A DNA stretch of 60,560 nucleotides. Source: Ferrimicrobium sp. (GTDB taxonomy: Bacteria > Actinomycetota > Acidimicrobiia > Acidimicrobiales > Acidimicrobiaceae). Under the pieces are notes generated by a model that saw only the letters and a list, made by a program, of their open reading frames with translations, had not been told where the DNA came from and ran no database searches. Positions 8,509-23,785 of the stretch are shown one piece after another (within the stretch, counting starts at the first letter, position 1; the number at the start of each line of letters is the position of its first letter). A program made the position numbers and the translations under genes. The stretch covers positions 1-60,560 of the forward strand of contig JALCZJ010000013.1 of assembly GCA_022690815.1 (NCBI GenBank), in the 5' to 3' direction.

Positions 8509-8536
8509 TGTCATTTCTCAATCATCTTGATCATCC
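8509..8536 (+). repeat. left terminal inverted repeat and outermost TnsB site
   Basis: This is the left terminus, starting TGTC and containing TCTCAATCATCTTGATCA, which is identical over 18 bases to the right terminus in inverted orientation. The TGT...ACA terminal dinucleotide style fits Mu/Tn7-type DDE transposases. Confidence 0.85.
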
Positions 8537-8588
8537 AAAACGGTTGTGAGCTGGGAATTGGCGAGCAGATGCTTCGGCAGTGTATCCC

Positions 8589-8657
8589 AAAATCTCAATC
8601 ATGTTGATCATCCGTGTCCCAAAATCGGTTATTCATCTCAGTTTAGTTGATCACTTC
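8589..8657 (+). repeat. internal left-end repeats (two further TnsB-like sites)
   Basis: AAAATCTCAATCATGTTGATCATCC lies at 8589-8613 and a weaker copy, ATCTCAGTTTAGTTGATCAC, at about 8634-8653. Both resemble the terminal repeat. TGTATCCCAAAATC and GTGTCCCAAAATC also recur just before these two sites. Spaced repeats at the end opposite the tns genes parallel the three-site left end of Tn7. Confidence 0.7.
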
Positions 8658-8808
8658 GGCGCAAGTCCGAAGGGATTGAGTCTGGTTCGCCGGTTCGGTG
8701 TGACTCACGGATGTGAATACGCTGATGTTTGGTGCTTGTTGGGGCCGTCCAAGCGGGATGCTTTGGCCCGCATCAATAGGTGGCGGGCGCCGGGTGGTGG
8801 TGAGTTGG

Positions 8809-9789
8809 TTAGAGTGTGACCGGGGTGCCCCAAACTTCTGACAGAGATGTCAGGAGATCGGTTGGTAAGTGTCGCTGCCAGACGTCTACCAGAGCGAATG
8901 GGTCAACCGTCAGCCGTTCGAACACCAGTAGACATTCGGGCTGCGACAGAAGAACATTGCGATCATCCTCCGCGTAGTCAGCGAATATCTCGTCCAGCTT
9001 CTCGCGATGGGTCTCAACAAACGTGTCCAGCGTGCTCTTATAGTCACTGGCGTTATCGGAACCAATTAGAGGGAGCAGTACGGTGATGATCCGCTTTGAT
9101 AGATCGACGTCCGTTGGCCGTGCAACCAAGGTCCAGAATTGCTGCTCCAAGATAGTTAACATACGCGCCTCCTCGTAGCCGGGAAGCCGACGGATTTGAT
9201 CGCGACCCCGCTCGACTTCGCCATCAAAAAGTTCTAAGAGTGCCATCAGACGATACACCCCTCGAGCCACCTCACTGGGTGCTTCTTGAACTGGTTTATA
9301 TAACAATTCATGTGAAACTGTTGCCCAAAGATTTTGGGCCTGCGTATGCAACTGGATCTCGCAGACCAATTCGCCAGCATCCTCTGTGCTTCTTGGTGGG
9401 TTTCCCTCATCGGGGACAGATACCTCGAAATGAACTCCGAGATACCGCAATCTGTCCGGTGGAAGATCCCGTCGCTTATCCTCATAGTGGCGTACATGGA
9501 AGAGGTTTCGAATGATTTGCTCGACCTCGCTAGCATGAGATTGGTACAGTGTAATGACGCGCACGCCGGCTTTGTCGTGGATATCATCCCAGGGCGACGC
9601 GTAGTCCTTGCGAAGGGCTTTCTTGAGGAAGCTAGCAGTGTCCTTTGCGCGACCTTCGACACTGCATGGAAGCCCATGCTGGCGGGTGGCCGTATGTAGC
9701 TGTTGAACTACCGAGGCAGCGAGAGCCTGATATCGTGGTTGCTCGGCCTGGTAACGTTCTCGTAGCGCCATTAAGTCAATTGCGGTCAT
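8809..9789 (-). CDS. RelA/SpoT-domain nucleotide synthetase (small alarmone synthetase type)
   Basis: The 326-residue protein has a synthetase-only RelA/SpoT fold. Motifs in order: EGRAKDTASFLKKAL (R-x-K-x3-S, nucleotide binding), DDIHDKAGVRVI (metal-binding D and G-x-R), RYLGVHFEV (the G-x-H region) and CEIQLHTQAQNLWATVSHE (E-x-Q substrate motif; His replaces the usual Arg after the EIQ-x). There is no HD hydrolase domain, so it could make (p)ppGpp-like alarmones or, as in toxic synthetases such as CapRel/FaRel, pyrophosphorylate adenosine nucleotides or tRNA. The C-terminal ~120 residues are helical and unassigned. It starts six bases after the NdpA-like gene and is cargo of the Tn7-like element. 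Confidence 0.85.
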   Translation of the reverse strand: MTAIDLMALRERYQAEQPRYQALAASVVQQLHTATRQHGLPCSVEGRAKDTASFLKKALRKDYASPWDDIHDKAGVRVITLYQSHASEVEQIIRNLFHVRHYEDKRRDLPPDRLRYLGVHFEVSVPDEGNPPRSTEDAGELVCEIQLHTQAQNLWATVSHELLYKPVQEAPSEVARGVYRLMALLELFDGEVERGRDQIRRLPGYEEARMLTILEQQFWTLVARPTDVDLSKRIITVLLPLIGSDNASDYKSTLDTFVETHREKLDEIFADYAEDDRNVLLSQPECLLVFERLTVDPFALVDVWQRHLPTDLLTSLSEVWGTPVTL

Positions 9790-9795
9790 CGCAGG

Positions 9796-10832
9796 TTAGC
9801 CCGACATTTGTTTCAACAGGTCGGTTACCTCGACTTTGGCTTTGTTGTTTGCTAACTCGGTTATTATGACAGTGCTTCCTATACTTTTGGGTGGTGCAAG
9901 GACTACAACACCGCTCTCGAAACCTATATGAATCCGCCGGAGGTGACTCCGGACAAGGCGGATGTCCTTGTCGAAGCCGGCCGTGGGCAATCGTGCTTCG
10001 TCCATCTGTTCAATGAATGACGATCGATCGGTGGTGTCGAGATAGTTACTTGCAAAGTCTAAGAGAGAGACTTTGCCTCGGGTTGAGTTCAATTCAGCTA
10101 ACAATGACACCTGGTATCGGGCCTTGGTTTCCGGGTCAGCAATCTTATCATTGATAAATTCTCTGCAGCCCAGAAAAAACGTTGAGTGGTGATCTCTGGC
10201 TGCTCACGTAGACGGCAACCAAGAAACCGTTCCAGGAAGAAATGGGCGACGGTGCTGTCATAGCTGCGCTGAGTGTCGCAGACCCAACCATCGACGGAAT
10301 TCAGACCGGCTTCAGCCTGTACGAAGAGACCGACCTTAAATACCTTTGTACGCTTGGTTAGCATGAGGTCCTGGAGGTGCTGAACACTGAATGTACGCTT
10401 TCCGTCGGTCTCCCCGAGTTCTACGCGAGCTCCCTCTTCCTTCTCCAGCTTCAAGATAGCAATACCGCTCCTGTCGGCTACGCTAACGCCGCACACCGTC
10501 AGTAGTCCTTCTGGGCTATTCCCCGTTTGACAGCGATAGAGGTGGCGAGCCATCTCCTGGGACATCGCGACGAAGCCATTTGCTTTGGGAGCCAGGTTGT
10601 TGAGGATTAGGCGCGGCACTGGCGAGGGGGCTGAAGCATCCAATTCGACTTCGTAGGCGGCGGAGCCGAGGCTGCTAGCTATGCGTTCCTTGAAAAAGTT
10701 ACGTATAACCGGAGTGAGAGGACTGTCTACATCACTGAGTATGGGTTCGCCGCTGACCGCGCTGGCCAAGTGGTACGGCACCGCGTGGACTATGATCTTC
10801 TTCACTCGCAATCGCCCAAGATCCTGAACCAC
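9796..10832 (-). pseudogene. NdpA/YejK-like nucleoid-associated protein, frameshifted
   Basis: Two overlapping frames together encode a 37-kDa nucleoid-associated-type protein. The first (GTG at 10832, after GGAGG) carries KKIIVHAVPYH, a FFKERIA helix and GLLTVCGVSVADRSGIAILKL, the hallmark strand of the NA37 family. The second continues with REFINDKIADPETKARYQV, a FIEQMD helix and FESGVVVLAPP near the C-terminus. They join if one base is added to the A6 run at 10174-10179 (T6 on the coding strand). Either the gene is broken, or the run is a slippage site or an assembly error. It is directly upstream of, and tightly spaced with, the RelA/SpoT-type gene. Confidence 0.75.
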
Positions 10833-11141
10833 AGCCCCTCCGTACAGTCGCCTTAGAGTAGTGATCCTAGTCCAGGCGCGCACGGCTAGGGAGTCTTCAC
10901 TGAGAGGGGAAGTTTGGGTTGATGGGGTTGGGCCTGCCAAGGCACACGAGAAGTAGGTGATGCAGTGACGGCAAACAGTGGTGCGGGCAACGCAGGACTC
11001 CCAAAGGATGGGCAAATGTCGCGTGCTGAACCGCCACCGTCAGACTTAGCCACTGCACCGTCAGCCACCGCACTGACGGATTCACGACCTCCACACCGTG
11101 CTCCGTCTCTGGTAGGATGAACCATCAGAAGGGAGGCATGG

Positions 11142-11284
11142 ATGCTTATCATAACCCGCAAGGAGGGCGAGAGGATCGTCATCGACGATGACATCGTGAT
11201 CACAGTGGTGGAGGCGAAACGGGGTTCGTGCGGGTCGGGATCGACGCGCCGCCGGAGGTAACGAGCGCACGAGAAGACGCATAA
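11142..11284 (+). pseudogene. csrA: csrA, carbon storage regulator, frameshifted copy
   Basis: The ATG at 11142 (after GGGAGG) begins MLIITRKEGERIVIDDDI, then VITVVEAKRGS, an unmistakable CsrA N-terminus. After GGTTCG the frame shifts: restoring one G gives VRVGIDAPPEVTSARED and a TAA at 11282, while the actual frame runs to a TAA at 11259. CsrA binds ANGGA motifs in mRNA leaders. The break removes the beta4-beta5/helix region with the RNA-binding RVGI(D/E)AP element. It is transposon cargo, and a second csrA remnant lies at 14.1 kb. Confidence 0.8.
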
Positions 11285-11458
11285 CCGATTGGGGTCGAGT
11301 AATCCAGTGGTGCGCCCCACATGAGATTAGGTGGAGGGTAAATGGCTCCGAAACTTGCATATCCCAGGGCGAGACACAACCATCGAGCAGATGGCCTATC
11401 TATGGGAGCAAGGAGCAGCGCCAGCAGGATGGCCGAACTGACTGTGCCACATCTTTGT

Positions 11459-12400
11459 TCAAGCTCGAAGTGGGATTGCCGAATGCGTGATTGCCACATC
11501 ATCGTAGCCGGATGATCCGAGCAGCAGTCGGATTGAGCGCTCCGCAAGGCCGGGGTTCTGAGTTGGACCGATGACAATTTCTCCAATGGGGAGCCGAGAT
11601 GGGGATGTCGCACCGTATCCGTCGACCAGCACATACGGCACGGGACCAAGCGAGCCGGTGCGAAATCTAGGGAGACCGGCGTTGATCAGCTTCGCTCGAT
11701 TCAGCCGAACGATAATACGCCATTCCTTCTCTTCAGCAAATCCAGGATGCTTGTAGAGGAGTGCTTTGGAGCCGATGTCGCCGAAGTACCCGTCTTTGAA
11801 TGAGTTCCAAGCGTCAAAGAGAGCCTCGCAACTCTCTCCTGTGGGCTTATTGTGTCTCAGGGCTTTCTTCAGTTGTTTCTGGATCTCTGCTCTCTGCATA
11901 GTGGGGTCGTAGCCGACCCGCTCGAACTTCCAGGAAGTGGGCGGATAATCTGGAGCCAAACGTTCCTTCTCAATTCGCTTGAAACCGATAGCGAATCCCC
12001 CGGTCCCTCTCGCGTATCCACGCCATTGGCTCAGAAGGTCCTTTTCTTCACAAAAGCATGCGATGAAGAACGACATGTCATCGCGGAGTGAGTCGAGCGC
12101 AAGCTCTCTTGCAAATTCGATCATGCCCACGACTTCTGCTCTACCAGGAGGATACGGGTGGTCACTCTTTATGAGTCGTTGTAGTTCCTCGCGAATGAGT
12201 TCGAAGACGTAGGTGAACTCACTGGCATCGTTCAGGTAAAGCGCATCTGTTGCCCATAGTTCTGCAGTCGTGATGATGCCGACTAGGCCTGCGGCATCCG
12301 TGTAGTGGTATAGCAACTCTGGACCATCTCCCACGGTGGAACGTTTGCTCGGTGCAGGATCCGTATGCCGAAACCTAGTTTTGGTGCGCGATGAGGACAC
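11459..12400 (-). CDS. DUF2971 family protein
   Basis: The 313-residue protein has the DUF2971 layout: LLYHYTDAAGLVGII near residue 30, LWATDALYLNDASEF (residues ~48-62), a central FFIACFCEEKDLLSQWRGYA (residues ~109-129), and EEKEWRIIVR near 220. This family occurs widely in accessory islands. The YHYT...LWAT...LND...E signature recalls ADP-ribosyltransferase-like folds, but no activity is established. It starts at a GTG at 12400. It is convergent with the csrA remnant, and the 174-base gap between them holds nothing I can name. Confidence 0.8.
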   Translation of the reverse strand: MSSSRTKTRFRHTDPAPSKRSTVGDGPELLYHYTDAAGLVGIITTAELWATDALYLNDASEFTYVFELIREELQRLIKSDHPYPPGRAEVVGMIEFARELALDSLRDDMSFFIACFCEEKDLLSQWRGYARGTGGFAIGFKRIEKERLAPDYPPTSWKFERVGYDPTMQRAEIQKQLKKALRHNKPTGESCEALFDAWNSFKDGYFGDIGSKALLYKHPGFAEEKEWRIIVRLNRAKLINAGLPRFRTGSLGPVPYVLVDGYGATSPSRLPIGEIVIGPTQNPGLAERSIRLLLGSSGYDDVAITHSAIPLRA

Positions 12401-12428
12401 ATACTTACGCTAACATCCATGCCTTCCT

Positions 12429-12935
12429 ATGACTGCATTTCGTCTCGCCTTCAAGAACATCGCGGAGCTTCTTCGGCGCGACTGATCCCAAGATACTGGA
12501 CGCGCCGTCCTTCTTGCAAGCACTGTCGGTTCCGACGAGTTTGCGTCTCGCACACCCCAGCTCACGGTCTCCAGAGGCATCGGAACATCGCGCCTCAAGG
12601 AGATAGTGGACAGCCGACGGAATGCCATCCGCACTACCTCGACGCTCGTGCGTGAGCAGCCTCTAGCATCAATGGTTCTCCTCAGGCAGTTCTACGAACC
12701 CAACGTCAACGGCGACGACAAGCTGCGGGCGTATTCGCTTCAGTGTGAAAAGTCGAGGCTGATTGGACACGGCGAGGTTGCCAAGTGCGACCACTTCGTC
12801 AAGATCGACAGTAAGGAGACAGGACGCGTCTGTGGCTTGGTTGAGCAGGATCTGCCACAGGCATTGTCCGTTGCGAGACATGCCGAGTCATCGGGACCCG
12901 GTGCCGATGTGAACAGATCTGACAGCTGGCGCTAG
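12429..12935 (+). pseudogene. hypothetical gene interrupted by one in-frame stop
   Basis: From an ATG at 12429 the frame reads MTAFRLAFKNIAELLRRD, hits a TGA at 12483-12485, then stays open to 12935 (about 150 further codons), with G or C dominant in third codon positions as in real genes. The downstream part includes LRQFYEPNVNGDDKLRAYS and HGEVAKCDHFVKIDSKE. I do not recognise the family. One nonsense change would explain the break; a start within the downstream part (GTG or ATG near 12606-12672) is possible. Confidence 0.4.
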
Positions 12936-13064
12936 CTTTAGTGAGCCAAAACCGCCAGCCAACTTCGGGGAAGGTGATTTTTCTGAACTAAACTTGATTT
13001 TCTGCCATAAATGGACGATCAAAATGTCTTAGAATGTTGGCAGGTCGAAATTATGAGGGGCAAA

Positions 13065-13238
13065 ATGGAGGACATCTCGAATGGCGGCGCCTTGGCAGTG
13101 CCCGCTGGAGTAGATCCCAACTGGCAAGATAAAATTGCCAGAGCGAAGGAGGCGAGGGATGCCGCTCTTCAACGCCGTGAGGGGAAGCCAGTCATATTCT
13201 CTTCCGGGTGGACGATTTGCAATTCGAAGAACCAATAG
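13065..13238 (+). CDS. small hypothetical protein upstream of and overlapping the protease gene
   Basis: This is a small ORF of about 57 residues. An ATG at 13065 follows GAGGGG at four bases; the frame is open further up to an ATG at 13011. The product has a helical, Lys/Arg/Ala-rich centre (WQDKIARAKEARDAALQRRE) and then GKPVIFSSGW. It overlaps the serine protease gene by 31 bases in another frame. It may be a small partner of the protease or its displaced N-terminus. No family is recognised. Confidence 0.45.
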   Translation: MEDISNGGALAVPAGVDPNWQDKIARAKEARDAALQRREGKPVIFSSGWTICNSKNQ

Positions 13239-14080
13239 TCACTCACCCCACGCAGTCGCCTCTGTTCCATGCGGAGAATGCCGAGAGATATAGCCGTCAG
13301 ACGCTGATCGCCGAGTATGAAAGGATTCACGATTGCAGGCTGGTCGTTGTATTTGACCAGCTTATGCCTTATAGCGTTTCCTTTTTCGAAGAACTGATTT
13401 TTGACGCGAATCGAGAGGAAGACCTCCATGTCATGCTTGTTACTCCCGGAGGCGACGGAGAAACCGCAGTACGATTGGTGCGCTCCTGCCAGGAACGATG
13501 CAATCGTCTCACCGTTCTGGTTCCTGATCAGGCAAAGAGTGCCGGAACGATCTTCGCTCTGGGGGCGCATGGGATCGTCATGGGACCCACCAGCGATCTT
13601 GGACCAATCGATCCTCAACTGTCAGCGCCGAACAGAGCGCTCATATCTGCCAAGGACATCATTGCTGCGGTCGCAGAAGCTGAGGCAGCGGTGCAAGCCA
13701 AGCCTGAAACGTTTGCGCTCCATGCTGGCCTTTTGGCTGATGTTACCGCTTTGATGGTACAACAAGCGCGATCAGCTCTAGCGCGCAGCGCTGACTTGAT
13801 GAAAGAGGCAATCGCAAGCAATCCAGATCGCAGCAAAACCGAAGCAGATGAACTCTCGAAGAGGTTGCTCGATCCCCTCATCGACTCCCCAAGATTTCAT
13901 GGAGCCCTTCTTGGAGCAAATGATGCCAAAAGTATCGGATTGCCCGTTGAAAGAATAGATCCTGCATCTGACCAGTGGAAGCTCGTATGGCGATTATGGA
14001 CAAAGTACTTGACACTTCGCCACCGGATCTACGAGGGGGCACGAGCGTCGAAAATCGTTGCGCCGTGGCCAATAGATTAG
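13208..14080 (+). CDS. Clp-fold serine proteinase of the SDH/SppA-like group
   Basis: The 290-residue protein carries the ClpP/crotonase-type protease core: RLVVVFDQLM, MLVTPGGDGETAVRLVR (oxyanion-hole Gly-Gly), LVPDQAKSAGTIFALGA with Ser111 as the probable nucleophile, and MGPTSDLGPIDPQL, the strand that orients the active site. This matches the serine dehydrogenase proteinase (SDH) branch. There is no signal peptide, so it is probably cytoplasmic or peripheral. A GTG start at 13208 lies inside the small upstream ORF. As transposon cargo it may serve host fitness or defence; the target is unknown. Confidence 0.8.
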   Translation: MDDLQFEEPIVTHPTQSPLFHAENAERYSRQTLIAEYERIHDCRLVVVFDQLMPYSVSFFEELIFDANREEDLHVMLVTPGGDGETAVRLVRSCQERCNRLTVLVPDQAKSAGTIFALGAHGIVMGPTSDLGPIDPQLSAPNRALISAKDIIAAVAEAEAAVQAKPETFALHAGLLADVTALMVQQARSALARSADLMKEAIASNPDRSKTEADELSKRLLDPLIDSPRFHGALLGANDAKSIGLPVERIDPASDQWKLVWRLWTKYLTLRHRIYEGARASKIVAPWPID

Positions 14081-14136
14081 TGGGGAGCACCTCGGCATTC
14101 AGATGGACGGGGACAAACAATTAGACATCCATCCGC

Positions 14137-14247
14137 ATTGTGATTGCCGTGGTCGAATCAAAACGAGGCTCGGTGCGGATCGGGATCGAAGCCCCGCCAC
14201 AGGTGGCGATCGCACGACTTGGCGATCAACCCGTAGAGATTGAGTGA
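14137..14247 (+). pseudogene. csrA: csrA C-terminal remnant
   Basis: The frame reads VIAVVESKRGSVRIGIEAPP, then QVAIARLGDQPVEIE and a TGA at 14245. This is CsrA from beta3 to the C-terminal helix, including the RIGIEAPP RNA-binding strand. The N-terminal MLxLTRKxGE part is absent; upstream bases do not encode it in any frame. A GTG at 14140 is available, but a functional CsrA without beta1-beta2 is implausible. It is the second csrA relic in this element; it keeps the region that the first copy has frameshifted, and lacks the region that the first copy keeps. Confidence 0.75.
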
Positions 14248-14548
14248 CTATACGAGATACGGGGATCATGAGAACAGGTGTCGAGTGCATGACCCCGACA
14301 TTGGTGAGCAGAGCAGATGGCTGGTCCATGGGAGCAGAGAACACGGCCTGATCAGTGGGGTGATCAACTTTGCCGGAATTTTGCTCAAACCTGTTGGCCA
14401 AATCTACGACCGTGTCTTTGGGTTCGTCCGCTTCTCGGACGAGAACATACCAAGGCTTTGCTGTTTGTAGGTGTGTCTTGGCCAGGTCACATCGCGATAG
14501 AACGAGTGCCACCATGGATCAAAGAATTGGGGTGGTCTAGCCATCCCA
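14248..14548. other. gap downstream of csrA remnant
   Basis: The stretch has no recognised gene. A plus-strand frame (to about 14470, containing GLISGVINFAGILLKPVGQIYD) and a minus-strand frame (from 14515, MVALVLSRCDLAKTHLQTAK) both look faintly coding; I cannot choose between them. It may be gene debris. Confidence 0.3.
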
Positions 14549-14629
14549 ATGGGGTTCGCTTGCGAAGAGCTCGGTAACCAAGGCAGAGATTCGAGCGGTA
14601 AGATTACTCCAAGTTGGGGGTTGGTGTGC

Positions 14630-16135
14630 ATGGTAGAGAAACCAGACAACGAAGGTAGATTCGCTTGGATCCGTAATCCATCAAAACAAGGATCGATCTT
14701 TCAGCACTCACTGGTTGTTATAACCCCATTGGCAATACTCGCAATTGTCGCTCTGGTCTTTGGATTCATATTTGCTGGTGATAACTCAGGAGCCAGAGTG
14801 CGGATGATCGAAGCATCACTCGCAGTCATAGGCGGAGCAGGTGCAGCGGTAGCCCTAGTAGTCAACTACCGTCGCCAGCAAGTACTCGAGGAACAGAATA
14901 ACAGAGCTGTAGACCAGGAAGCATTCAATAGAAACGAAGTCCTGGCAAGGCGTGATATAGATCGTCAGGAAACTCTTACCAAGCACTTCTCTGACTTCAC
15001 CAACCAGCTAGCAGACGACAGAGTACCGGTCAAGCTCGCAGGGGTCTACTCGCTCTTTCGTCTAGCCGACGAGTGGAAGGAACACCGCCAGCAGATTATC
15101 GATGTTCTCTGTGGTTACCTGAGACTCCCTTGGCGAGATGAGGAAATTCTCGTTCTCATACCAGAGGAAGAGAGGCGAACAAAGGTCAACCCCGCATGGA
15201 CAACGGAGCACACGGTCCGCGAAACTATCCTTCGAGAGATGGTGAAGAGAATGCAACAAGGGGGGACTTTTGTGGAAGCCGCCTACGCTTATAACTACAG
15301 CGGTGCAACCTTCTCTGGGGACGCGTACTTCATGGGAGCTATTTTCTCCGGAGATGCCGATTTCACCGGTGCAACCTTCTCCGGGGATGCCTACTTCATG
15401 GGAGCCACTTTTGCGAGAGTGTCCTTGTTCGTTAAGACCACGTTTTCCGGGGACGCCCGCTTTGGAGCCATCGATGTCATCGGTGGTCCCGACAGCGATG
15501 GAGGCCCTGCAACCTTCTCCGGGGATGCCTACTTCATGGACTGCATGTTCGAAAAGAAGGCGCAATTCTGGAAGACTACCTTCTTGGGAAAGGTCTACGC
15601 CTTTAGAGCTATCTTCAATGAACGTGCTAATTGTACCAATGTTACTTTTGATCAGTCACTGGAAATGAATCTAGCAAAGTTCAAGGACGGGGTTGACTTT
15701 CACCGTGCTGACTTCCAGGGGGACGTTGAATTTATCGAGACGAAGTTCGAGAGAGGTGGAAAGTCTGTTTGGCGCGCTGCGATGTTTGATGACGCTAAGT
15801 TTAGAAGTACCTCAACGTTTGATGGGGCGGTCTTTGACGGCGTGAGCTTTTGTGGCGTGAAGTTGTGCAGTGGGGCTGATTTTACTAGAGCGTCTCTGGC
15901 TGAGGCTACATTCGCTGATGCTGCTCTTAGTGGCTACATCGATTTCACTAACAGTAGGTTCACGGGAGCCGCCAGCTTTACATCCGCCACCTTGAATGTG
16001 GATGTAAAGTTTAACCCTGCAAGTTTCAAAACATCCGCTGATCTCCAGGATATCAGCTTCAGTGATGGTTGCGTCTGGCCCACTGGCATCCCTAATCCTC
16101 CACCGTCAAACATCACCATCTCCATCCGAAAGTAG
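14630..16135 (+). CDS. membrane-anchored pentapeptide-repeat protein
   Basis: About 500 residues from the ATG at 14630 (an ATG at 14549 is in frame but lacks a ribosome site). The N-terminus has two hydrophobic helices (VVITPLAILAIVALVFGFI and ASLAVIGGAGAAVALVV), then a charged helical linker, then from about residue 220 a long run of A(T/D)FxG(D/A) five-residue repeats forming a right-handed beta-helix (e.g. GATFSGDAYFMGATF). The DNA itself is repetitive at 15301, 15369 and 15507 (near-identical copies of ACCTTCTCCGGGGATGCCTA), so the domain is still expanding or recombining. Similar membrane-linked pentapeptide proteins are common in actinobacteria, and their role is generally unknown. Confidence 0.85.
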   Translation: MVEKPDNEGRFAWIRNPSKQGSIFQHSLVVITPLAILAIVALVFGFIFAGDNSGARVRMIEASLAVIGGAGAAVALVVNYRRQQVLEEQNNRAVDQEAFNRNEVLARRDIDRQETLTKHFSDFTNQLADDRVPVKLAGVYSLFRLADEWKEHRQQIIDVLCGYLRLPWRDEEILVLIPEEERRTKVNPAWTTEHTVRETILREMVKRMQQGGTFVEAAYAYNYSGATFSGDAYFMGAIFSGDADFTGATFSGDAYFMGATFARVSLFVKTTFSGDARFGAIDVIGGPDSDGGPATFSGDAYFMDCMFEKKAQFWKTTFLGKVYAFRAIFNERANCTNVTFDQSLEMNLAKFKDGVDFHRADFQGDVEFIETKFERGGKSVWRAAMFDDAKFRSTSTFDGAVFDGVSFCGVKLCSGADFTRASLAEATFADAALSGYIDFTNSRFTGAASFTSATLNVDVKFNPASFKTSADLQDISFSDGCVWPTGIPNPPPSNITISIRK

Positions 16136-16351
16136 ACATAAATGGAGCGTGTATTTGGACATATTTCAGGCAAGGTAAAGGTGATCCACGATTTTAATGA
16201 TTATTGCCGATGGCGGTCAGCGCTCTCGCGCGTGGCAAGTTTCAGCGAGAGCAAATCGCGAGGCTCCAATTCGGAGACCGGCTGGATCGGTCAAGTGTTG
16301 GCGAGCACGGAGTTGTTGAATAGCAACAACAAGAAAGAAGGTTAGCACCAT

Positions 16352-17248
16352 ATGGATTCAGGACTTTTTGGCGAAGGGAGTATCCGGCTCGACTGGACCG
16401 ATGTCGATGGCTTTCCTGGATTGACCCCCCAGCTCATTCTCAAGGGGGAACTTACGGCCAAAGGGTATGGGGTCGGGGCTGTTGTACAGATTACTGCCGA
16501 AGTCACGGCTTGGGATATCGTTAGAACGCATGCATTCCTCGGAACGACAGCACCACGATCGTACGTTCTGAACTGGATCGACAACTACAGTTATGTCCAA
16601 CCGAATCCTGCTCCAAAGGATGAGAAAACTTGGAACGTTGAACTGAAGTTGCCGATGGCTCCTTCAGTCATCGAGGGACTCGAAGAGCGTCGCCAGGGCA
16701 AAGACTTCTCGCTGAAGATCGACACGACGGTGCTCCTTGTCGACGACGGTGAACCGAAGAGACCACGAACACAAAGCTATTACGCCACGCACCCAGTGAG
16801 GGGCTCTCAGGACCAAATTCGTATTGACCAGCACAAATGGGCTACAGTGCTCGAACGGTGGGAGCGAGGGGTGGGCATCCCTGTATTGGTGCCGCTCGTG
16901 GCGCTTGAGCCCAATGCAGACCGAGCGGATGTCATCCGCCACATCAAGTCAGCAAGACAGAAGATCGATGGTGCAGACTACTTGGGTTCATTCACCGAAG
17001 CCCGGCTGTCTTTGGAACTGCTTCGCAAACTGAGTCCTGTAACGGTATCGCTTCCGAGAGACCCGAAGAGCCGTGATCCTCTACAGCGAATTCATGGTGT
17101 GATCGATGCACTTCACAGCCTTGGGAGTGCGACGCTGCACACCGATCCTCCAATTAAGGACTTTGTACCGATGCGAGCCGATGCCGTTGCCTTGGTTGCT
17201 GGTACGGCAAGTGTTGCACAACAGGTCTTCGCCTGGCTCGATCGTTGA
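16352..17248 (+). CDS. hypothetical two-domain protein, helical C-terminus
   Basis: The 298-residue protein starts at an ATG at 16352 preceded by GAAGGTTAGCACCAT. The N-terminal ~140 residues look beta-rich (SIRLDWTDVDGF, PQLILKGEL, VVQITAEVTAW). The C-terminal third is helical, with a segment ADYLGSFTEARLSLELLRKL, an IHGVIDALHSLGSATLHTD segment and R-x-DAVALVAGTASVAQQV. A helical bundle with a late H-x-D and a closing R-x-DA helix recalls abortive-infection-type C-terminal domains, but no HEPN R-x4-6-H motif is certain. It is transposon cargo, standing alone. Confidence 0.6.
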   Translation: MDSGLFGEGSIRLDWTDVDGFPGLTPQLILKGELTAKGYGVGAVVQITAEVTAWDIVRTHAFLGTTAPRSYVLNWIDNYSYVQPNPAPKDEKTWNVELKLPMAPSVIEGLEERRQGKDFSLKIDTTVLLVDDGEPKRPRTQSYYATHPVRGSQDQIRIDQHKWATVLERWERGVGIPVLVPLVALEPNADRADVIRHIKSARQKIDGADYLGSFTEARLSLELLRKLSPVTVSLPRDPKSRDPLQRIHGVIDALHSLGSATLHTDPPIKDFVPMRADAVALVAGTASVAQQVFAWLDR

Positions 17249-17650
17249 TGTGGCAGGGAGCACCGTAGCTATCTGATGTGATATGAAATACCAGCTCGGC
17301 AGGCCACGGACCACATATCATAACAAAGGACAGTCGCTAAGTTAAGAGAGGATTATGCAAATTTCGGCGCTACTTTCGGGTAGGTCAACCTAGTTTCGCA
17401 AACGGCCCCCAGGTCAGGGCATGTGCCAACCCTATAGACCTGCAGGAAAACGCAACGGAGCCTACAAAGTGGCAATGGTGTCAGCGAAACGTGTGCCCTT
17501 TTAACCCTGCGGCCTTTGCAACGATTTAGCTCTCCACAAGTGTGGAAGGCCTTTTGGATTATGAGCGCCTGTCTCAGCTCTACTCTGCTCGCCCCTCTCG
17601 CATTTCAGGTGGATTATATAGTATTCACCACTCCAGTCCATTACTGATGA
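17249..17650. other. intergenic region inside transposon cargo
   Basis: There is no supportable gene here. A perfect short palindrome, TCCACAAGTGTGGA, lies near 17533-17546, followed by GGCCTTTT; it is a weak candidate for a hairpin terminator of the gene upstream. Confidence 0.3.
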
Positions 17651-17854
17651 GAGAGCCGTGTCCGTAAACTACGTGGTGTCGTCTTGTTTAAGGCCTATGT
17701 CGCACACCCAGAGCGATTGGCGTACACAATCTCCACATCGCCTGCGTTACCGATCGCCACTTGGAGCGCGAAACCGGCCAAAGAAGTAACTGATTCACTG
17801 AAATTATTCAAAAAGTATCTCGAACCACATGACACGCGTCGTGATGATGATTAA
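17651..17854 (+). pseudogene. IS3-family transposase (orfB) C-terminal remnant
   Basis: The frame (open from the stop at 17648) reads VVLFKAYVAHPERLAYTIST, then SPALPIATWSAKPAKEV and a TAA at 17852. The pattern (A-x-AHPERF, P-x-x-P-x-LP-x-A-x-W-x-x-P) is the C-terminal tail typical of actinobacterial IS3-type integrase-like transposases. The catalytic rve domain is missing, so this is a degraded leftover. It indicates earlier IS activity inside the element. Confidence 0.5.
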
Positions 17855-17913
17855 GATGTCGGTGTTAGCGGGGTCATTATCAATGATAACTCATAACCCC
17901 GACGTGGGAGGGC

Positions 17914-18747
17914 GTGATGCGCATAACGCACAGGAAACTGATCATGGTGGTTGCATCTCTAGTCTTGGTCTTCGCTGCAGCCGGGAGCTTCGCATTGACG
18001 AGGAGGTCTGCGCCGCGCCTTGTTCCACTCAAGTCAATACCGTCCTCTAAGAACACGGGGGGTCCACCGTGGGAGCCATCCCAGCGTGGAGGCGCGACTA
18101 GAAGTGCGGTGGTAAGCTCTCCACTTTGTACGTCGACGCAGCTTGAGACGCAGTACTGGACCAGCTTGCCGGGATTCGACAACCAGATGAGTGGCTTCAA
18201 TCTCATCAATAAGTCAGGTCAGGCATGTTCGCTGCCGGTGTATCCTTCCTCTCTGTATCTGGCAAATGCCGACGGCACCCCAGCGACGATGCCGCTGCTA
18301 CCTGGTCCGGCGGGGGAAAAGGGATCGAGTGACTTCTTGGCCTATGGGTCCGCTAAAGCTCCTGCGACATCATCATTTGCGATCCCTCTCAGCCCTGCTC
18401 CCATCACCCTCGCTCCAGGTGGTACGGCAGTAGACATCCTTTTCGGTACCGTCGGTGTCAATCAGCAACCAGGAGATCCCGCTTGTATTTCGACACCCGT
18501 CGGAGGTAGCATCGCCGTCTCACTGGGAAATGAGTCCCCGGTACACGTGTACATGCCCGCTAAAGCAGGGACGTCAAAGTCGCTGATTGATCCAACCGGA
18601 GCTCCCTTTTCGTCATGCACTGCAGTGGCGTTCTCCCCGTTTATCACCTGGAGTGAGGCGAGCAATCTCGTCGGTGCTCCGTATACCCGCACTAGTCAAG
18701 GAGATCTCCCGCTCAAGAACACCGCGGCCTTTATTAACGCGCCGTAG
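17914..18747 (+). CDS. exported DUF4232-like protein
   Basis: The 277-residue protein has an N-terminal signal anchor (residues ~8-28, KLIMVVASLVLVFAAAGSFA). After a Pro/Ser-rich linker comes a beta-sandwich of DUF4232 type: a Cys near the start (LCTSTQLETQYW), MSGFNLINKSGQACSLPVYP (N-x-s-x-x-C-x-L-x-x-YP), and a late conserved CTAVAF. It should act outside the cytoplasmic membrane, attached or released. It is first in a run of three exported proteins at the right part of the cargo. Its start is the GTG-ATG at 17914. Confidence 0.7.
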   Translation: MMRITHRKLIMVVASLVLVFAAAGSFALTRRSAPRLVPLKSIPSSKNTGGPPWEPSQRGGATRSAVVSSPLCTSTQLETQYWTSLPGFDNQMSGFNLINKSGQACSLPVYPSSLYLANADGTPATMPLLPGPAGEKGSSDFLAYGSAKAPATSSFAIPLSPAPITLAPGGTAVDILFGTVGVNQQPGDPACISTPVGGSIAVSLGNESPVHVYMPAKAGTSKSLIDPTGAPFSSCTAVAFSPFITWSEASNLVGAPYTRTSQGDLPLKNTAAFINAP

Positions 18748-18754
18748 GTGCCCC

Positions 18755-18794
18755 ATATACCATTCGGACCCCAGATATACCATTCGGACCCCAG
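18755..18794 (+). repeat. perfect 20-bp tandem duplication
   Basis: ATATACCATTCGGACCCCAG occurs twice head to tail (18755-18774 and 18775-18794) in the 96-base gap between two exported-protein genes. It lies 50 bases before the GTG of the next gene, so it may be a duplicated operator or a recent slippage product. Confidence 0.85.
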
Positions 18795-18843
18795 GTTTCT
18801 ACAGTGTGATTCAGCGGCAAGAGATCAATGAAAGTAGGCTCCA

Positions 18844-19725
18844 GTGATTGAACGATTCCTTCGGCGAATAGGCGGAACCCTAACGCTCCTGGTGTTAGCC
18901 GTTGCGGCGGTCATCGCACTTACCGGCACTGCAGCGTATGCTGGTGATACGCCAACAGGATATTGGTATGGCTCAGACGGCTCCGGGCCAGCCCCTCAGG
19001 GGACGGGAGTCGAGTACACGATGCCGAACTGTGGTGGGGCTTATGGCTCGTATACAGGCCAGCTCAACCAAGTGAGTAGCCCTTATAACGTTGCTTCAGA
19101 TTCGAATGCGGCTAATGCGAATCAAGCATCAGGATACGGCGTCGGAAGCCAGAACTCCTTTATGATTGCACCACCTCAGTCAGATCCTTCATACAACGGT
19201 ACAGCTACTGAAGCAACATTCTGGGGTGAGTCTCAAGGTAATGCTGCGATGGAAAACTGGGGTTCATTTTATGGTCAAAGTGGAATCAACTTACCGTCCA
19301 ACCCGATAATTTATGCTGATCTTGAGAACTCGCAGTACACCTGGAATTCGGGGACTACTTCACTAAATCGAGACGTGTTCAACGGATTCTGGAACGAGGT
19401 GCATCAGAAACTCGTCTCCATCAAGGGTACTCAACGGGAAATCTATGCTGGTGTCTACGCCACCGCAAACTTCTGGTCTAACTACATGACGGGCACTCTT
19501 GGCGGGACATATGAGTGGACTGCGCAGACATCCTATGGATCATACTCTTCAGGCAATTGTGCGAGTGGCTGGAAATCACCCGTTGGCTACATCGCGGACT
19601 TCTACGCAGGTTACAACCAGAATTCTGCATGTGCTGTGGCGTGGCAGTGGATTTCGGGGAAAGCTGACTATGACCAAGTCAATGGTTCTCAAATCGTAAG
19701 CGGTCAAGGCGGTGCTTGCAACTAG
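18844..19725 (+). CDS. secreted DUF1906 (glycoside-hydrolase-like) protein
   Basis: The 293-residue protein has a Sec signal peptide (basic MIERFLRRIGG, hydrophobic core, TAAYAGD cleavage region near residue 34). The mature part is Tyr/Ser/Asn-rich and contains NPIIYADLEN (strand with acidic D-x-E), NGFWNEVHQKL, a IYAGVYATANFWSNYM segment and VAWQWISG. These are the TIM-barrel-like landmarks of DUF1906/Rv2525c proteins, which resemble GH25 lysozymes and may act on cell-wall glycans. The GTG start at 18844 gives the signal peptide. Four Cys may form disulphides. Confidence 0.75.
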   Translation: MIERFLRRIGGTLTLLVLAVAAVIALTGTAAYAGDTPTGYWYGSDGSGPAPQGTGVEYTMPNCGGAYGSYTGQLNQVSSPYNVASDSNAANANQASGYGVGSQNSFMIAPPQSDPSYNGTATEATFWGESQGNAAMENWGSFYGQSGINLPSNPIIYADLENSQYTWNSGTTSLNRDVFNGFWNEVHQKLVSIKGTQREIYAGVYATANFWSNYMTGTLGGTYEWTAQTSYGSYSSGNCASGWKSPVGYIADFYAGYNQNSACAVAWQWISGKADYDQVNGSQIVSGQGGACN

Positions 19726-20184
19726 TTCGACATGGGTAGGTTCATAGGGCCTGTTATCCTGGGGAAATGAGGTTCTGCTTCGTTAGTGCAAGCTGCTGGC
19801 GGCGATGAACACGTCGAGTATGCCTCAGATGGCGGAAGTTGAGCACTGGGTTGTAATTGAGACGTGCTCGCACAGTTCCCTGACGAGGTGCGATGCACGG
19901 CGAAGACCTGGACTGCCTAGGCTGGATGGATTGCTTGTGGCGCAATATGTCGACTGGATGGTGGTGTTGTCCGAGTAGGACGCTGTTCGTGCTTGATGCT
20001 CAACGGGGAAGCCAGAAAGGAACCGTCGGCTGCTGCATTAAAGCGGAACGGGAACTAGCCCAAGTTGTAAAATAGTGAGGTTCTGGTGGTTCACTTTGCC
20101 TTATAGATTTGTTTGTAGTCTCACCATGTAGGTCAGTATGGAGCATGTTTTGGTCAGAATTGTGGTCGTGGAGGTCTCCTGGGG
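19726..20184. other. intergenic region between exported-protein genes
   Basis: I see no gene here. The upstream part is GC-rich with fragmentary frames; the last ~100 bases before 20185 are AT-richer and probably hold the next gene's promoter. Confidence 0.3.
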
Positions 20185-21171
20185 ATGATGAGCAAGACTA
20201 AAGTGTCGGTAGTATCAGCCGCTGTGCTAGTAGTTGTTCTCGTCATGGGAATAGTTATCTTCGGTAGGATCAATGGCAACACGACCAGACCTGGCGCAAC
20301 AGCCCCGAATGCCGTAGGTGGTGGATTACTTGTCGGGGTTGGACCATCACAAGGTGGAATATCTATCTACAGTCCGCTGTCCGGACGGCCACTCAGGGAA
20401 CTTACCGCACCCCCGTTTGGACATTTCCCTTTTCTCAGCCCCAACGGGAGTTCAGTATACTTCACCACTTCAACACCAGGTAGCGAGACCTGCGAATCTG
20501 ACATTGAGAAAAAGCTGATCGATGGCAAGAGCCATCCGATAGTCCAGGGCCAACAGATCAACGCCTTTACCATGACCTCGTACCGACACTGGGCACTCTG
20601 GCTCTCTTCAAGTGCGGGTTGTAACCCCAGACCTCCGTATGCGCTGCACAAGATGAATGTGAAGACCGGCCAGACGCAAGTGAAGAAATACCGTACTTTC
20701 GTCGAATCCATGGCCGTAACGGCCAACGGATCGGAACTTGCGCTCGAACAGCAAGCGTTAGCAGTCCCTTTGAGTCAATCAACTACGAAGATCTACCTTT
20801 ATGCATGGGCGAGCGCCACACCAGAGGCGAGTCCAGCGAACGTCTTGCCATGTCCCAAGGGCGCCTCTGAATGCACTCAGGCATCACCTGCCTTTACCCA
20901 GAACGGCGAGCTCTTCTATGTTGCATCTATCGGACCCCATGACGTAAACTGTGCCGATCGTGAATGTGCAACACAGAGGTTCATGCTCGTGCGTATCCAT
21001 CAGCACAAGGCGATCCAGGTCGCCTCTGTCGTCGCTCCGAGTTTCCAGACCTATCTGGCCGTCTCACCATCCGGCAACGAAGCAGTGTTGAGCATTGGTA
21101 ACCGGTCATACTTTTGGAAGGCAGGTCATGGGCTGGTTCACATAGCGAGGCTATATGAGGAGTCGTGGTAG
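20185..21171 (+). CDS. membrane-anchored beta-propeller-like protein
   Basis: The 328-residue protein begins MMSKTKVSVVSAAVLVVVLV, an uncleaved signal anchor or signal peptide, then a Thr/Pro linker. The extracellular part has blade-like repeats with phrases such as GISIYSPLSGRPLREL, FPFLSPNGSSVYF, MAVTANGSELAL and LAVSPSGNEAVL, a pattern seen in WD40/TolB-like propellers. Several paired Cys (CESDIEKK; CPKGASEC; CADRECA) suggest disulphides. Its binding partner is unknown. It is the last cargo gene before the transposition operon, which is convergent with it. Confidence 0.65.
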   Translation: MMSKTKVSVVSAAVLVVVLVMGIVIFGRINGNTTRPGATAPNAVGGGLLVGVGPSQGGISIYSPLSGRPLRELTAPPFGHFPFLSPNGSSVYFTTSTPGSETCESDIEKKLIDGKSHPIVQGQQINAFTMTSYRHWALWLSSSAGCNPRPPYALHKMNVKTGQTQVKKYRTFVESMAVTANGSELALEQQALAVPLSQSTTKIYLYAWASATPEASPANVLPCPKGASECTQASPAFTQNGELFYVASIGPHDVNCADRECATQRFMLVRIHQHKAIQVASVVAPSFQTYLAVSPSGNEAVLSIGNRSYFWKAGHGLVHIARLYEESW

Positions 21172-21897
21172 CAACGTGAGCAAGCATTTCATTCTGGTGG
21201 TGAGAGTTACGGACTGAGTATTTGCTACTTCCACTTGATCACTCGAACTAGGCGAGTCGGCACGCGATTGGATCACGAGGGGCCTCTCAATTCGCTTGAT
21301 GTAGTAGACGAAGTTGCACCGTTTGGTCCGAAGTGGCCGTTTGTTTTCAGCGGTTGGAGTTTGGGGACGGGCGCTGTAGGGGGAGAGACTTGTCAACGTA
21401 TCTTCACTCCACCGAATTGTTGCCACGCTGCTTTAGTTCAGAATGCAAGTAGAGGCGTGCACAAGCAAAGGGGCATTCCCGGTTGCGTCAGGGGAGATAC
21501 CGGGTTGCGAATGACTGTCTGTTGGATCGTGTAATCGCGCGCCTACCTTGCAGTTAGTCAAGAGCGTGGATGGGCCCTTGATCTCCGACCGAGGGTGGAA
21601 GGCCGCGTTCGGTTTCGGTCTGTCCGTGCAGATCCTTGTCGAAAGACCAAGTTTGTCAGCGCCAACGAGAGCCGCAATGTCGTTCCACGCTTCGTCCGCA
21701 TGCAGCCGGATCGCGATGACCTGCCGCCTGCTGTCGAGTGATCCTAGAGACGGACGGACTCCCGGTAGTCTGGCTGTGATGGGTGAGGTGGTTCACGAGT
21801 ACCGCAGTGAGGTACTGAGAAGTGGCAATCGGGTCGATAACAAAGTATGCGAGGGTTGAGGTGATGGTGCTTAGGGTGATTCAGCGGTGACCCCGCC
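21172..21897. other. gap between cargo and tniQ, with a possible decayed ORF
   Basis: There is no intact gene in this stretch. On the minus strand, from about 21785 down to 21440, an open frame with GC-rich third positions reads RRQVIAIRLHADEAWNDIA and onward. The opening strand plus helix resembles a ribbon-helix-helix protein, but no start codon is present. It is probably a remnant. Confidence 0.3.
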
Positions 21898-22761
21898 TCA
21901 GGCATGCTTGCCTAGAGATCTATCGGTCATGCGATGCTGGAAAATGCGCAGTTTGCGGTCGCGCGCGTCCCATGCCTCACCTAAGTTGCTTTCGAGCCGG
22001 TCGGAATAAAGTTTGAGTCTAGACGACACTCGTGTTCGTCCCTCGGACGATAACTCTGGAGGTATTATCTTCTCGATGTAGCGATAGCGTCGTGCTTTGG
22101 ATTCTCTGATAGGGGTGATACGCTTGATAAATGTCGGATCAGTGAAGAGCGAGACAAATTGGATCGTCTCGGGATAGGTGACGAGCGATGTAAGCTTTAG
22201 GCCAGTCGCAACCTCGCGCCTCGCGCACTGCTCCTCACCAATGCCGGCGAACGCCAATTCCTCGCATGTGCGATAGGTGGTAGTACCACAGATGTTCTCT
22301 CGTCCATTTGCTACTAGTTCTCGCAGATGATGTTCTGCGTTGATGATTTCTGGAATGGGGGAAAAGGCAACTGGTCGAGATCCTCGCAGCCAGAAGGCGT
22401 GCTTCGGGCAGACATATCCAGAGGTGGGATCTCTGACGTGGACGATCTCACCCGCTGAACATTGGAGACACATAACTCGTTCAGCAATCGTGCCATGATC
22501 CGGAGGAAGGTCGAGCGAGCGAGACCCAAGGTCACCAAGGATAGCGAGGGCATTGAGATATGCATTAGGGTAGGCAGTCGAAAAGTGAGCCTGACTCGGC
22601 GAAAGACCAACGCCGGCCCGCAGGTCTGCTCGATTAAGGTGGTTCGCATTAGCGAGCCGCATCTCGTATGATGTGGGTGTCTCCCATGGATAATACTTGA
22701 CGCGAATTGGGAGAGGTCTAAGCAGCCGCATCGTCTGCAGTTGAAGACGGTTCCCACACAT
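21898..22761 (-). CDS. tniQ: TniQ/TnsD-type target-selection protein
   Basis: This is the fourth gene of the transposition operon. The 287-residue product begins with LPIRVKYYPWETPTSYEMRL, the TniQ signature (P-x-RV...GE/T-x-x-SY-x-x-RLA). At residues 98-121 it has Cys-x2-Cys (MCLQC) and, 17 residues on, Cys-x2-His (VCPKH), the zinc finger that closes TniQ domains. The remainder is helical. It is short, like TniQ of Tn5053 or CRISPR-associated Tn7 elements, rather than like the long site-specific TnsD. It should link the ATPase to the target, which is unknown here. The start is at 22761 or 22731. Confidence 0.85.
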   Translation of the reverse strand: MCGNRLQLQTMRLLRPLPIRVKYYPWETPTSYEMRLANANHLNRADLRAGVGLSPSQAHFSTAYPNAYLNALAILGDLGSRSLDLPPDHGTIAERVMCLQCSAGEIVHVRDPTSGYVCPKHAFWLRGSRPVAFSPIPEIINAEHHLRELVANGRENICGTTTYRTCEELAFAGIGEEQCARREVATGLKLTSLVTYPETIQFVSLFTDPTFIKRITPIRESKARRYRYIEKIIPPELSSEGRTRVSSRLKLYSDRLESNLGEAWDARDRKLRIFQHRMTDRSLGKHA

Positions 22762-22768
22762 TCGCGAC

Positions 22769-23782: not shown

Positions 23783-23785
23783 TTG

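What the first reader, a model, noticed from the sequence alone, without database searches (positions are those of the whole stretch)
8809..10832. RelA/SpoT-type synthetase paired with an NdpA-like nucleoid protein as transposon cargo
A synthetase-only RelA/SpoT protein with a His in place of Arg after the E-x-Q motif, and a long unassigned C-terminus, is encoded six bases after an NA37/NdpA-family gene. Toxic synthetases are known to be paired with antitoxins or phage-sensing domains (for example CapRel). I know of no described pairing with an NdpA-type protein, and carriage on a mobile element suggests defence or addiction. If the upstream protein senses or binds DNA, the pair could be a new alarmone-based system.
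Basis: inference. Interest (0 to 1): 0.75.

Follow-up and report, generated by a model that had tools for sequence, protein, structure and literature searches.

The report
Mobile alarmone-synthetase and YejK-like operon
A gene for an enzyme of the family that makes bacterial alarm nucleotides sits next to a gene for a DNA-associated protein on a jumping element, and the same pair, often with a membrane-protein gene, recurs in distant bacteria, which suggests an anti-virus or survival system, although the copy read here is damaged.

Summary
Partly confirmed and extended. The 326-aa RelA/SpoT synthetase (8809-9789, minus) is intact; its NA37/YejK-family neighbour is split by a frameshift, also present in a second copy of the transposon. 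The pair is no one-off: 11 of 12 distinct loci with this synthetase architecture have the NA37 gene directly upstream, and five more pairs occur in Pseudomonadota, including E. coli, Klebsiella and Neisseria. Of 32 synthetases without the C-terminal domain in the tree set, one has it. Fifteen of 16 linked rows fall in one supported clade; the partners' distances correlate (r=0.93). A membrane-protein gene is tightly coupled in 8 of 16 linked and 2 of 32 unlinked loci, SLATT/DUF4231 in E. coli and Klebsiella. Eight of 17 pairs were seen on mobile elements; one E. coli copy adjoins PsyrTA. Best reading: a mobile growth-arrest, probably anti-phage, operon whose YejK-like protein regulates an alarmone synthetase; sensor or antitoxin is open. 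The window copy is probably decayed. A YejK domain was validated in E. coli phage defence in 2026 (PMC13092281); its operon was not visible to me, so overlap is possible.

The parts
8809..9789 (-). RelA/SpoT-family synthetase, 326 aa, intact
   Evidence: PF04607 E=6.5e-14; model pLDDT 88.5
9184..9762 (-). catalytic domain (residues 10-202), fold of small alarmone synthetases SAS1/RelQ and RelP
   Evidence: 5dec_B Z 19.1, rmsd 2.9 over 182 residues
8830..9174 (-). all-helical C-terminal domain (residues 206-320), found by profile in 12 distinct synthetase loci, in two stand-alone Streptomyces plasmid proteins and once upstream of the pair in L033
10098..10832 (-). NA37/YejK-like gene, 5' part, runs to a stop in its own frame (GTG start at 10832)
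   Evidence: PF04245 E=1.3e-07
9796..10185 (-). NA37/YejK-like gene, 3' part, in another frame
   Evidence: separate match, E=4.0e-36 at 9799-10185
10174..10179 (-). run of six T (minus strand) where the two frames meet; frameshift present in both copies of the transposon seen
8509..26655 (.). Tn7-like transposon that carries the pair, TGT...ACA ends; right end 300 bases from the synthetase stop
   Evidence: divergence from L026 starts at 8509; the other end is read from the sequence only
25831..26577 (-). TnsA-like endonuclease
   Evidence: PF08722 E=1.3e-4, below curated cut-off
23786..25837 (-). TnsB-like transposase
   Evidence: TnsB 5.2e-10; Mu-transpos_C 3.8e-10
22769..23782 (-). TnsC/TniB-like ATPase
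   Evidence: TniB 1.3e-10; TnsC 1.7e-4
21898..22761 (-). TniQ-like target protein
   Evidence: TniQ 0.0019, below curated cut-off

Best explanation
The synthetase and the NA37/YejK-like gene are two parts of one conserved, often mobile operon, frequently with a third gene for a small membrane protein. Shown by sequence: homology, tight linkage, co-divergence, intact catalytic motifs, mobile contexts in 8 of 17 pairs. Inferred: it is a conflict module that stops growth. The YejK-like protein would hold or switch the synthetase in response to a disturbance of DNA or nucleoid (phage infection, DNA damage, loss of the element); the active synthetase makes alarmone-type nucleotides or drains ATP/GTP; the membrane protein, where present, would be a second effector or target. 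The copy in this window is probably decayed: its NA37 gene is frameshifted and no membrane-protein gene was found beside it.
For: NA37 gene directly upstream in 11 of 12 distinct loci with the C-terminal domain, plus five pseudomonadotal pairs and L083; gaps -20 to +43 bases in 14 intact pairs; 15 of 16 linked rows in one clade, support 95/84; NA37 and synthetase distances correlate, r=0.93, n=14, 0 of 10,000 permutations as high, also when permuted within strata; catalytic residues invariant in 12 of 12 rows; membrane gene tightly coupled in 8 of 16 linked against 2 of 32 unlinked loci, Fisher p=0.001; SLATT/DUF4231 in E. coli and Klebsiella, the SCU-102 one hitting PADLOC 2TM effectors at 4e-6; one E. 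coli copy beside PsyrT/PsyrA; window and SCU-102 synthetases hit PADLOC candidate PDC-S33; mobile contexts. A YejK domain is reported as validated in E. coli phage defence (PMC13092281).
Against: No phenotype, product or trigger was testable. No PADLOC model matched the NA37 proteins tried (window pieces and SCU-102). No membrane gene was found tightly coupled in 8 of 16 linked loci; for two of these (L027, L023) one lies nearby or split, for six (window element, L002/L084, L028, L033, L069, L070) none is directly coupled. The membrane proteins fall in families that look unrelated. The C-terminal domain of the pseudomonadotal synthetases is not found by the C-domain profile and matches only weakly by profile-profile (E=0.0019, probability 14.5%). 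NA37 relatives exist without the synthetase (L067/L086, L072). The E. coli pair was found in only 3 of 5,426 genomes by DNA similarity, which may miss divergent copies. Three of the 16 pairs (L071, L073, L074) were found through the NA37 protein or the pair's DNA, so they do not test linkage independently.
Confidence: 0.5

Rival explanations
1. Classical toxin-antitoxin pair: the synthetase is a toxSAS and the YejK-like protein is its antitoxin, carried for addiction.
For: Partner gene upstream, short gaps or overlaps, mobile carriage; toxSAS antitoxin pairs are known (PMC10440598 and PMC11782079, titles and abstract starts in listings).
Against: In the window transposon, in two copies at different sites, the partner is frameshifted while the synthetase is intact, which is hard to keep if the partner were needed against a lethal toxin (unless the truncated product still works). 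Catalytic fold is closer to SAS1/RelP (Z 18-19) than to CapRel (13.7) or FaRel2 (8.2). A third, membrane gene is not part of that scheme.
Confidence: 0.25
2. Not a conflict system: a regulatory unit of mobile elements in which the YejK-like protein controls transfer or expression and the synthetase couples this to stringent-response physiology.
For: NdpA2 is part of the control of transfer of the element PAPI-1 in P. aeruginosa (PMC8565334, title and abstract start in listing); chromosomal yejK is reported as an SOS locus in Salmonella (PMC8072944, two passages).
Against: The carriers seen are of different kinds: Tn7-like transposon, linear and circular plasmids, tRNA islands; a membrane partner and a PsyrTA neighbour fit conflict better.
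Confidence: 0.12
3. The operon is already catalogued: it is the validated DefensePredictor unit with the YejK domain. (This is about prior discovery and does not exclude the best explanation.)
For: PMC13092281 section 5 lists a YejK nucleoid-associated domain among ten domains newly validated in defence; its Fig. 3 legend explains transmembrane parts.
Against: The partner genes are only in the figure and supplements, which I could not read; term searches of the text showed no alarmone, ppGpp, pyrophosphokinase, SLATT or DUF4231, and no RelA gene among the passages shown. The strains used were primarily ECOR; the three E. coli carriers found here do not bear ECOR names.
Confidence: 0.35

Closest known systems
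CapRel (fused toxin-antitoxin tRNA pyrophosphokinase, anti-phage)
   Same: RelA/SpoT-type catalytic domain with a C-terminal extension; Foldseek and VIA hits 7ztb, 9erv
   Different: the VIA alignment stops at residue 195 of 326, so no likeness of the C-terminal part was seen (it was not searched alone); separate partner gene of the NA37 family and often a membrane gene; closer in sequence to SAS1/RelQ
Small alarmone synthetases SAS1/RelQ and SAS2/RelP
   Same: same catalytic fold and motifs (Z 19.1 and 18.7; best profile match E=5.1e-21)
   Different: added helical domain of about 115 residues, operon with an NA37 protein, mobile carriage
toxSAS toxin-antitoxin pairs (FaRel/FaRel2, PhRel)
   Same: synthetase encoded in a tight two-gene unit on mobile DNA (for the known pairs: recalled and abstracts)
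   Different: partner family differs; toxicity untested; FaRel2 fold match weak (Z 8.2)
E. coli YejK / Pseudomonas NdpA (NA37 family)
   Same: best structural hit of the partner model is YejK 9be2, E=1.4e-10 over 348 columns; Pfam NA37
   Different: 16% identity, TM-score 0.46 and rmsd 13.1 in that match; accessory and operonic with a synthetase
CBASS and SMODS/SLOG-SLATT nucleotide-signal systems
   Same: nucleotide-making enzyme encoded in an operon with a SLATT/2TM membrane protein in E. coli and Klebsiella; SLATT predicted as nucleotide-responsive pore (PMC7159879 passage)
   Different: the enzyme is of the RelA/SpoT family, not a CD-NTase, and has an NA37 partner

Membership tests
RelA/SpoT synthetase (small alarmone synthetase type) | synthetase domain with conserved catalytic residues, no hydrolase or TGS/ACT domains | tested here: met
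   PF04607 the only Pfam family; R47, K49, S53, K57, D72, R77, Y116, H120, E144, Q146 invariant in 12 rows; fold Z 19.1 to SAS1
RelA/SpoT synthetase (small alarmone synthetase type) | makes (p)ppGpp or related nucleotide | not testable with these tools
   no assay
toxSAS toxin-antitoxin system | adjacent partner gene that recurs | tested here: met
   11 of 12 loci with the C-terminal domain, five further pseudomonadotal pairs
toxSAS toxin-antitoxin system | synthetase toxic alone and neutralised by partner | not testable with these tools
   frameshifted partner with intact synthetase in the window argues against but does not decide
CapRel | C-terminal pseudo-zinc-finger antitoxin/phage-sensing region (recalled) | tested here: inconclusive
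   alignment to CapRel ends at residue 195; the C-terminal domain was not folded or searched alone
NA37/YejK nucleoid-associated protein | Pfam NA37 above curated cut-off over most of the profile | tested here: met
   window 5' part 31.8 bits, cut-off 24.6, profile 24-207 of 325; intact L040 60.7 bits over 9-303 of 325; the distant L083 protein has no Pfam hit
NA37/YejK nucleoid-associated protein | binds DNA/nucleoid | not testable with these tools
   no assay
CBASS-like nucleotide signalling with membrane effector | SLATT/2TM effector in the operon | tested here: inconclusive
   annotated or matched in E. coli and Klebsiella (the Pfam SLATT match of L074 is below cut-off); other membrane proteins in actinobacteria; none found in the window
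CBASS-like nucleotide signalling with membrane effector | CD-NTase/SMODS cyclase | tested here: not met
   enzyme is PF04607 RelA_SpoT
Tn7-like transposon (carrier) | TnsA, TnsB, TnsC, TniQ and TGT...ACA ends with repeated TnsB-site-like motifs | tested here: met
   TnsA and TniQ matches lie below Pfam cut-offs

The most novel reading that the evidence does not exclude
A further kind of nucleotide-signal immunity: a YejK-like sensor of DNA or nucleoid state switches on a RelA/SpoT synthetase, and the alarmone made gates a SLATT-type or other membrane effector, so that an alarmone plays the part that cyclic oligonucleotides play in CBASS.
Probability: 0.22. Interest if true: 0.9.

Novelty: new variant of a known kind. 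Interest (0 to 1): 0.62.

Why it matters
If the operon defends against phages, it would join alarmone synthesis, a nucleoid-associated protein family of unclear function and a membrane effector in one often mobile unit spread over four phyla. It would give YejK/NA37 proteins a testable role as infection sensors, and it would show whether an alarmone can act as an immune messenger to a membrane protein rather than only as a stress signal or poison. E. coli and Streptomyces copies make this directly testable in laboratory strains.

Tried and rejected
Viral contigs: three scans (synthetase alone, NA37 alignment, synthetase alignment) found no relative. Phage records: 3 with a synthetase match to the Klebsiella protein; two were looked at and show no NA37 gene beside it. 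Programmed frameshift in the window NA37 gene: the T-run resembles a slippery heptamer (motif recalled), but the RNA downstream folds no better than shuffles (z=-0.10), and the relatives' genes are open through this point, so decay is preferred. Sequencing error as the cause: unlikely, as a copy at another site has the same break, but both are draft assemblies and could share a sample. His after E-x-Q as loss of function: rejected. Class-wide search with the synthetase alignment: 139 of 296 genomes matched, most listed rows being open frames over 600 aa (long Rel type); in that draw only the window genome scored like this family (467 bits, next 84). A family draw of 301 genomes around G050 gave 2 matches at 1e-30, without NA37 in the flanks held. 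The C-terminal domain: no Pfam family, no PDB match outside the catalytic part, but it was not modelled alone, so a known fold is not excluded. One chromosomal search each in plasmids, phages and E. coli cannot show absence elsewhere. Papers: in the rows listed (top 10 to 20 of up to some thousands) I saw none that pairs NA37/NdpA/YejK with a RelA/SpoT synthetase, but only titles, abstract starts and term counts were seen for most; a term search inside PMC11782079 found no nucleoid or membrane-protein mention; Burroughs 2015 on SLATT is not held and is cited through a passage of PMC7159879; supplements could not be read.

Counts and rows left out: distinct loci whose synthetase has the C-terminal domain by profile = window element (L001, L026, L038, L039, L043, L066, L068 counted once), L002 (=L065, L084), L023, L027, L028, L029, L030 (L031 near-identical, counted once), L032, L033, L034, L040 (=L085) and the degraded orphan L041; 11 of 12 have NA37. 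Further pairs: L069, L070, L071, L073, L074 (five) and L083; so 16 linked loci and 17 pairs with L083. H48/H69 (E. coli KFu023, near-identical to L073) and H43 (second gonococcus) were not fetched. The script printed L027 as unlinked because its stop-to-stop frame begins far upstream; its NA37 gene ends two bases before the synthetase start, so I count it as linked. L069 was not put in the tree because its synthetase is in two pieces. Several unlinked loci have under 1.5 kb of upstream sequence (as little as 467 bases). Membrane calls rest on a hydropathy window only, and related loci are not independent in the Fisher tests.
Full report
Observation. The synthetase ORF at 8809-9789 on the minus strand encodes 326 aa and matches Pfam RelA_SpoT at 6.5e-14. 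Upstream, separated by six bases, lies an NA37/NdpA (YejK) family gene. It is not one open frame: the 5' part, 10098-10832, matches NA37 at 1.3e-07, and the 3' part, about 9796-10185, lies in another frame and matches the family separately. The frames meet at a run of T (10174-10179). The locus L026 (a metagenome bin titled Actinomycetes bacterium; a 2,890-base stretch of genome G332, another genus of the family, is identical to it) holds 8,281 bases of the same transposon with 41 mismatches and no gaps; 39 of the 41 fall in 15349-15708, and the frameshift is shared. So the break is in both assemblies.

Carrier. L026 and the window diverge exactly at 8509, where TGTCATTTCTCAATCATCTTGATCATCC begins; related motifs occur at 8518, 8595 and 26628 (3 matches against 0.02 expected), and an end in ACA is read at 26655. 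TnsA-, TnsB-, TnsC- and TniQ-like genes fill 21898-26577. The pair is the cargo nearest the right end of an 18.1-kb Tn7-like element. Between the synthetase and that end the hydropathy scan gave only one short opposite-strand frame with a single hydrophobic stretch, and nothing upstream in 10700-11700, so no membrane-protein gene of the kind seen elsewhere.

Recurrence. Relatives were sought in genomes, plasmids and E. coli chromosomes. Of 12 distinct loci whose synthetase has this C-terminal domain by profile, all of them found by synthetase searches, 11 have an NA37 gene directly upstream on the same strand. They come from Actinomycetota (the window genus, genome G061, Streptomyces, Streptomonospora), and by record title Planctomycetota (L028) and Dormibacterota (L033). 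The exception, L041, is a truncated synthetase with an internal stop; a transposase-like gene lies before it (read by eye). Five more pairs are pseudomonadotal: an Ochrobactrum plasmid (L070), a Klebsiella conjugative plasmid (L071), two E. coli islands (L073, L074) and Neisseria gonorrhoeae (L069), where the synthetase gene is itself in two frames. L069 and L070 were also hit by the synthetase search; L071 was found through the NA37 protein, and L073 and L074 through the pair's DNA, so these three do not test the linkage. In 14 intact pairs the gap is -20 to +43 bases. Of 32 synthetases without this C-terminal domain in the tree set, one (L083, a Rhizobium conjugative plasmid) has an NA37-like gene beside it (profile E=9.3e-17, overlap of 4 bases; no Pfam NA37 hit) and 31 do not, some with short flanks. 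In plasmid records, 5 of 6 with an NA37 match to the L040 protein have the synthetase next to it by coordinates; the sixth, a Clostridiaceae plasmid, does not.

Phylogeny. In a tree of 48 catalytic domains, 15 of the 16 linked rows fall in one clade of 16 (support 95/84) whose only unlinked member is L041; L083 stands apart on a long branch. The label needs 3 changes, against a mean of 13.7 in shuffles (0 of 500 as low). NA37 and synthetase distances correlate at r=0.93 for 14 pairs (0 of 10,000 permutations as high, also when permuted only within Proteobacteria and the rest; r=0.89 for the 10 non-proteobacterial pairs). The two genes have travelled together for a long time.

The proteins. The synthetase model (pLDDT 88.5) matches small alarmone synthetase SAS1 (5dec_B, Z 19.1, rmsd 2.9 over 182 residues) and RelP (6ewz_A, Z 18.7) better than CapRel (7ztb_B, Z 13.7) or FaRel2 (8pu3_C, Z 8.2); the sequence profile also places CapRel entries far below SAS1-type ones. 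R47, K49, S53, K57, D72, R77, Y116, H120, E144 and Q146 are invariant in 12 aligned members. Residues 206-320 are helical in the model. This region also occurs without the synthetase: 26 of the 40 plasmid rows listed start at query residue 202 or later; two of these Streptomyces proteins were examined (L024, L025), and one such frame lies upstream of the pair in L033. The pseudomonadotal synthetases have an extension of similar length; the C-domain profile does not find it, the full-length profile aligns to position 320 in L073 and L074, 303 in L071 and L069 and 207 in L070, and a profile-profile comparison of the C-terminal parts alone is collinear but weak (103 columns, E=0.0019, probability 14.5%; N-terminal parts 1.5e-25). 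The NA37 partner, modelled from the intact L040 relative (pLDDT 76.8), has E. coli YejK 9be2 as its only strong structural match (E=1.4e-10, 348 columns, but TM-score 0.46 and rmsd 13.1).

A third gene. In Streptomyces and Streptomonospora loci and in L040/L085 a gene for a protein with two to four hydrophobic segments overlaps or touches the synthetase stop; in E. coli and Klebsiella a SLATT/DUF4231 gene lies directly upstream of the NA37 gene. With one rule for both sets, such a gene is tightly coupled in 8 of 16 linked loci and 2 of 32 unlinked ones (Fisher p=0.001; with at least two segments 7 of 16 against 0 of 32, p=1.6e-4). L027 has a 63%-identical relative of the L040 protein about 190 bases downstream, and L023 has the Streptomyces one in two frames, which the rule did not count. 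The SLATT protein of E. coli SCU-102 hits PADLOC 2TM effectors at 4e-6; its Pfam SLATT match is below the curated cut-off, while the Klebsiella DUF4231 match is above it. SLATT proteins were predicted to be nucleotide-responsive pores (PMC7159879, passage).

Context. Mobile carriers were seen for 8 of 17 pairs: a Tn7-like transposon (window), a linear plasmid (L023), a small plasmid (L070), conjugative plasmids by PLSDB typing (L071, L083), integrase islands at tRNA-Thr (L073, L074) and a tRNA-Val site with an integrase-like and an HTH-like gene (L084; genes read by eye, tRNA). The wider context of the other nine was not worked out. In L074 the neighbouring genes are PsyrA (7.3e-170) and PsyrT (E printed as 0, 1045 bits) by PADLOC. 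By DNA similarity the pair is in 3 of 5,426 complete E. coli genomes; more divergent copies could be missed.

Interpretation. Linkage, co-divergence, mobility, the membrane partner and the PsyrTA neighbour make a conflict function, most likely phage defence by growth arrest, the best reading. The role of the YejK-like protein is inferred. If it were an antitoxin against a lethal enzyme, the frameshifted window copy with an intact synthetase would be hard to explain; a sensor or activator whose loss silences the system fits better, though a truncated protein might still neutralise. The window copy itself is probably inactive.

Literature. A 2026 study validated 42 E. coli defence units and names ten defined domains new to defence, one being a YejK nucleoid-associated domain (PMC13092281; section 5 and the figure legends read, further passages seen). 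The parts I saw do not say what else that unit encodes. It may be this operon. In the rows listed by the full-text searches made here I saw no paper describing the NA37-RelA/SpoT pair. The novelty call is therefore a new variant of known alarmone-synthetase conflict systems, with real uncertainty about prior discovery.

Noticed in passing
window 8480-8508: Directly left of the transposon end at 8509 lies what looks like the ACA end of another, related element (to 8499), followed by ACAGCGTTT; the same nine bases follow the far end at 26655. This suggests two related transposons inserted in tandem at one site.
   Followed up: partly
window 15349-15708: 39 of 41 differences between the window transposon and its L026 copy fall in the pentapeptide-repeat part of the 14549-16135 gene, a sign of local recombination or fast change.
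   Followed up: partly
window 11142-11280 (+): A short frame resembling the start of CsrA (resemblance recalled, not searched) that runs out quickly; probably a remnant.
   Followed up: no
window 11459-12400 (-): DUF2971 protein in the same cargo, with weak matches to PADLOC candidates PDC-S31 (8.4e-06) and AbiGi (0.033).
   Followed up: no
L044:1186-3636 (genome G345, same class): RelA_SpoT domain in one protein with TPR repeats, a TPR-S match and an LSDAT/SLOG match (the last two just below Pfam cut-offs): another synthetase in a nucleotide-signal-like architecture.
   Followed up: partly
L024, L025 and further Streptomyces plasmid rows: The synthetase's C-terminal domain occurs without the catalytic domain; in the two loci examined in proteins of 268 and 266 aa near a DUF6292 protein.
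   Followed up: partly
L067 / L086 (genome G274): An NA37 relative without the synthetase, overlapping a protein with one hydrophobic segment, near an integrase-like frame (by eye) and a tRNA-Val gene.
   Followed up: partly
L083:1170-2929 (Rhizobium leguminosarum plasmid): A distant NA37-like gene overlapping a short RelA/SpoT gene of 203 aa, near a DarT-family gene; possibly an independent or very old pairing.
   Followed up: partly
L069:6001-8047 (Neisseria gonorrhoeae): The pair is present with the synthetase gene in two frames; the record is filed as a plasmid in PLSDB but has chromosome size.
   Followed up: partly
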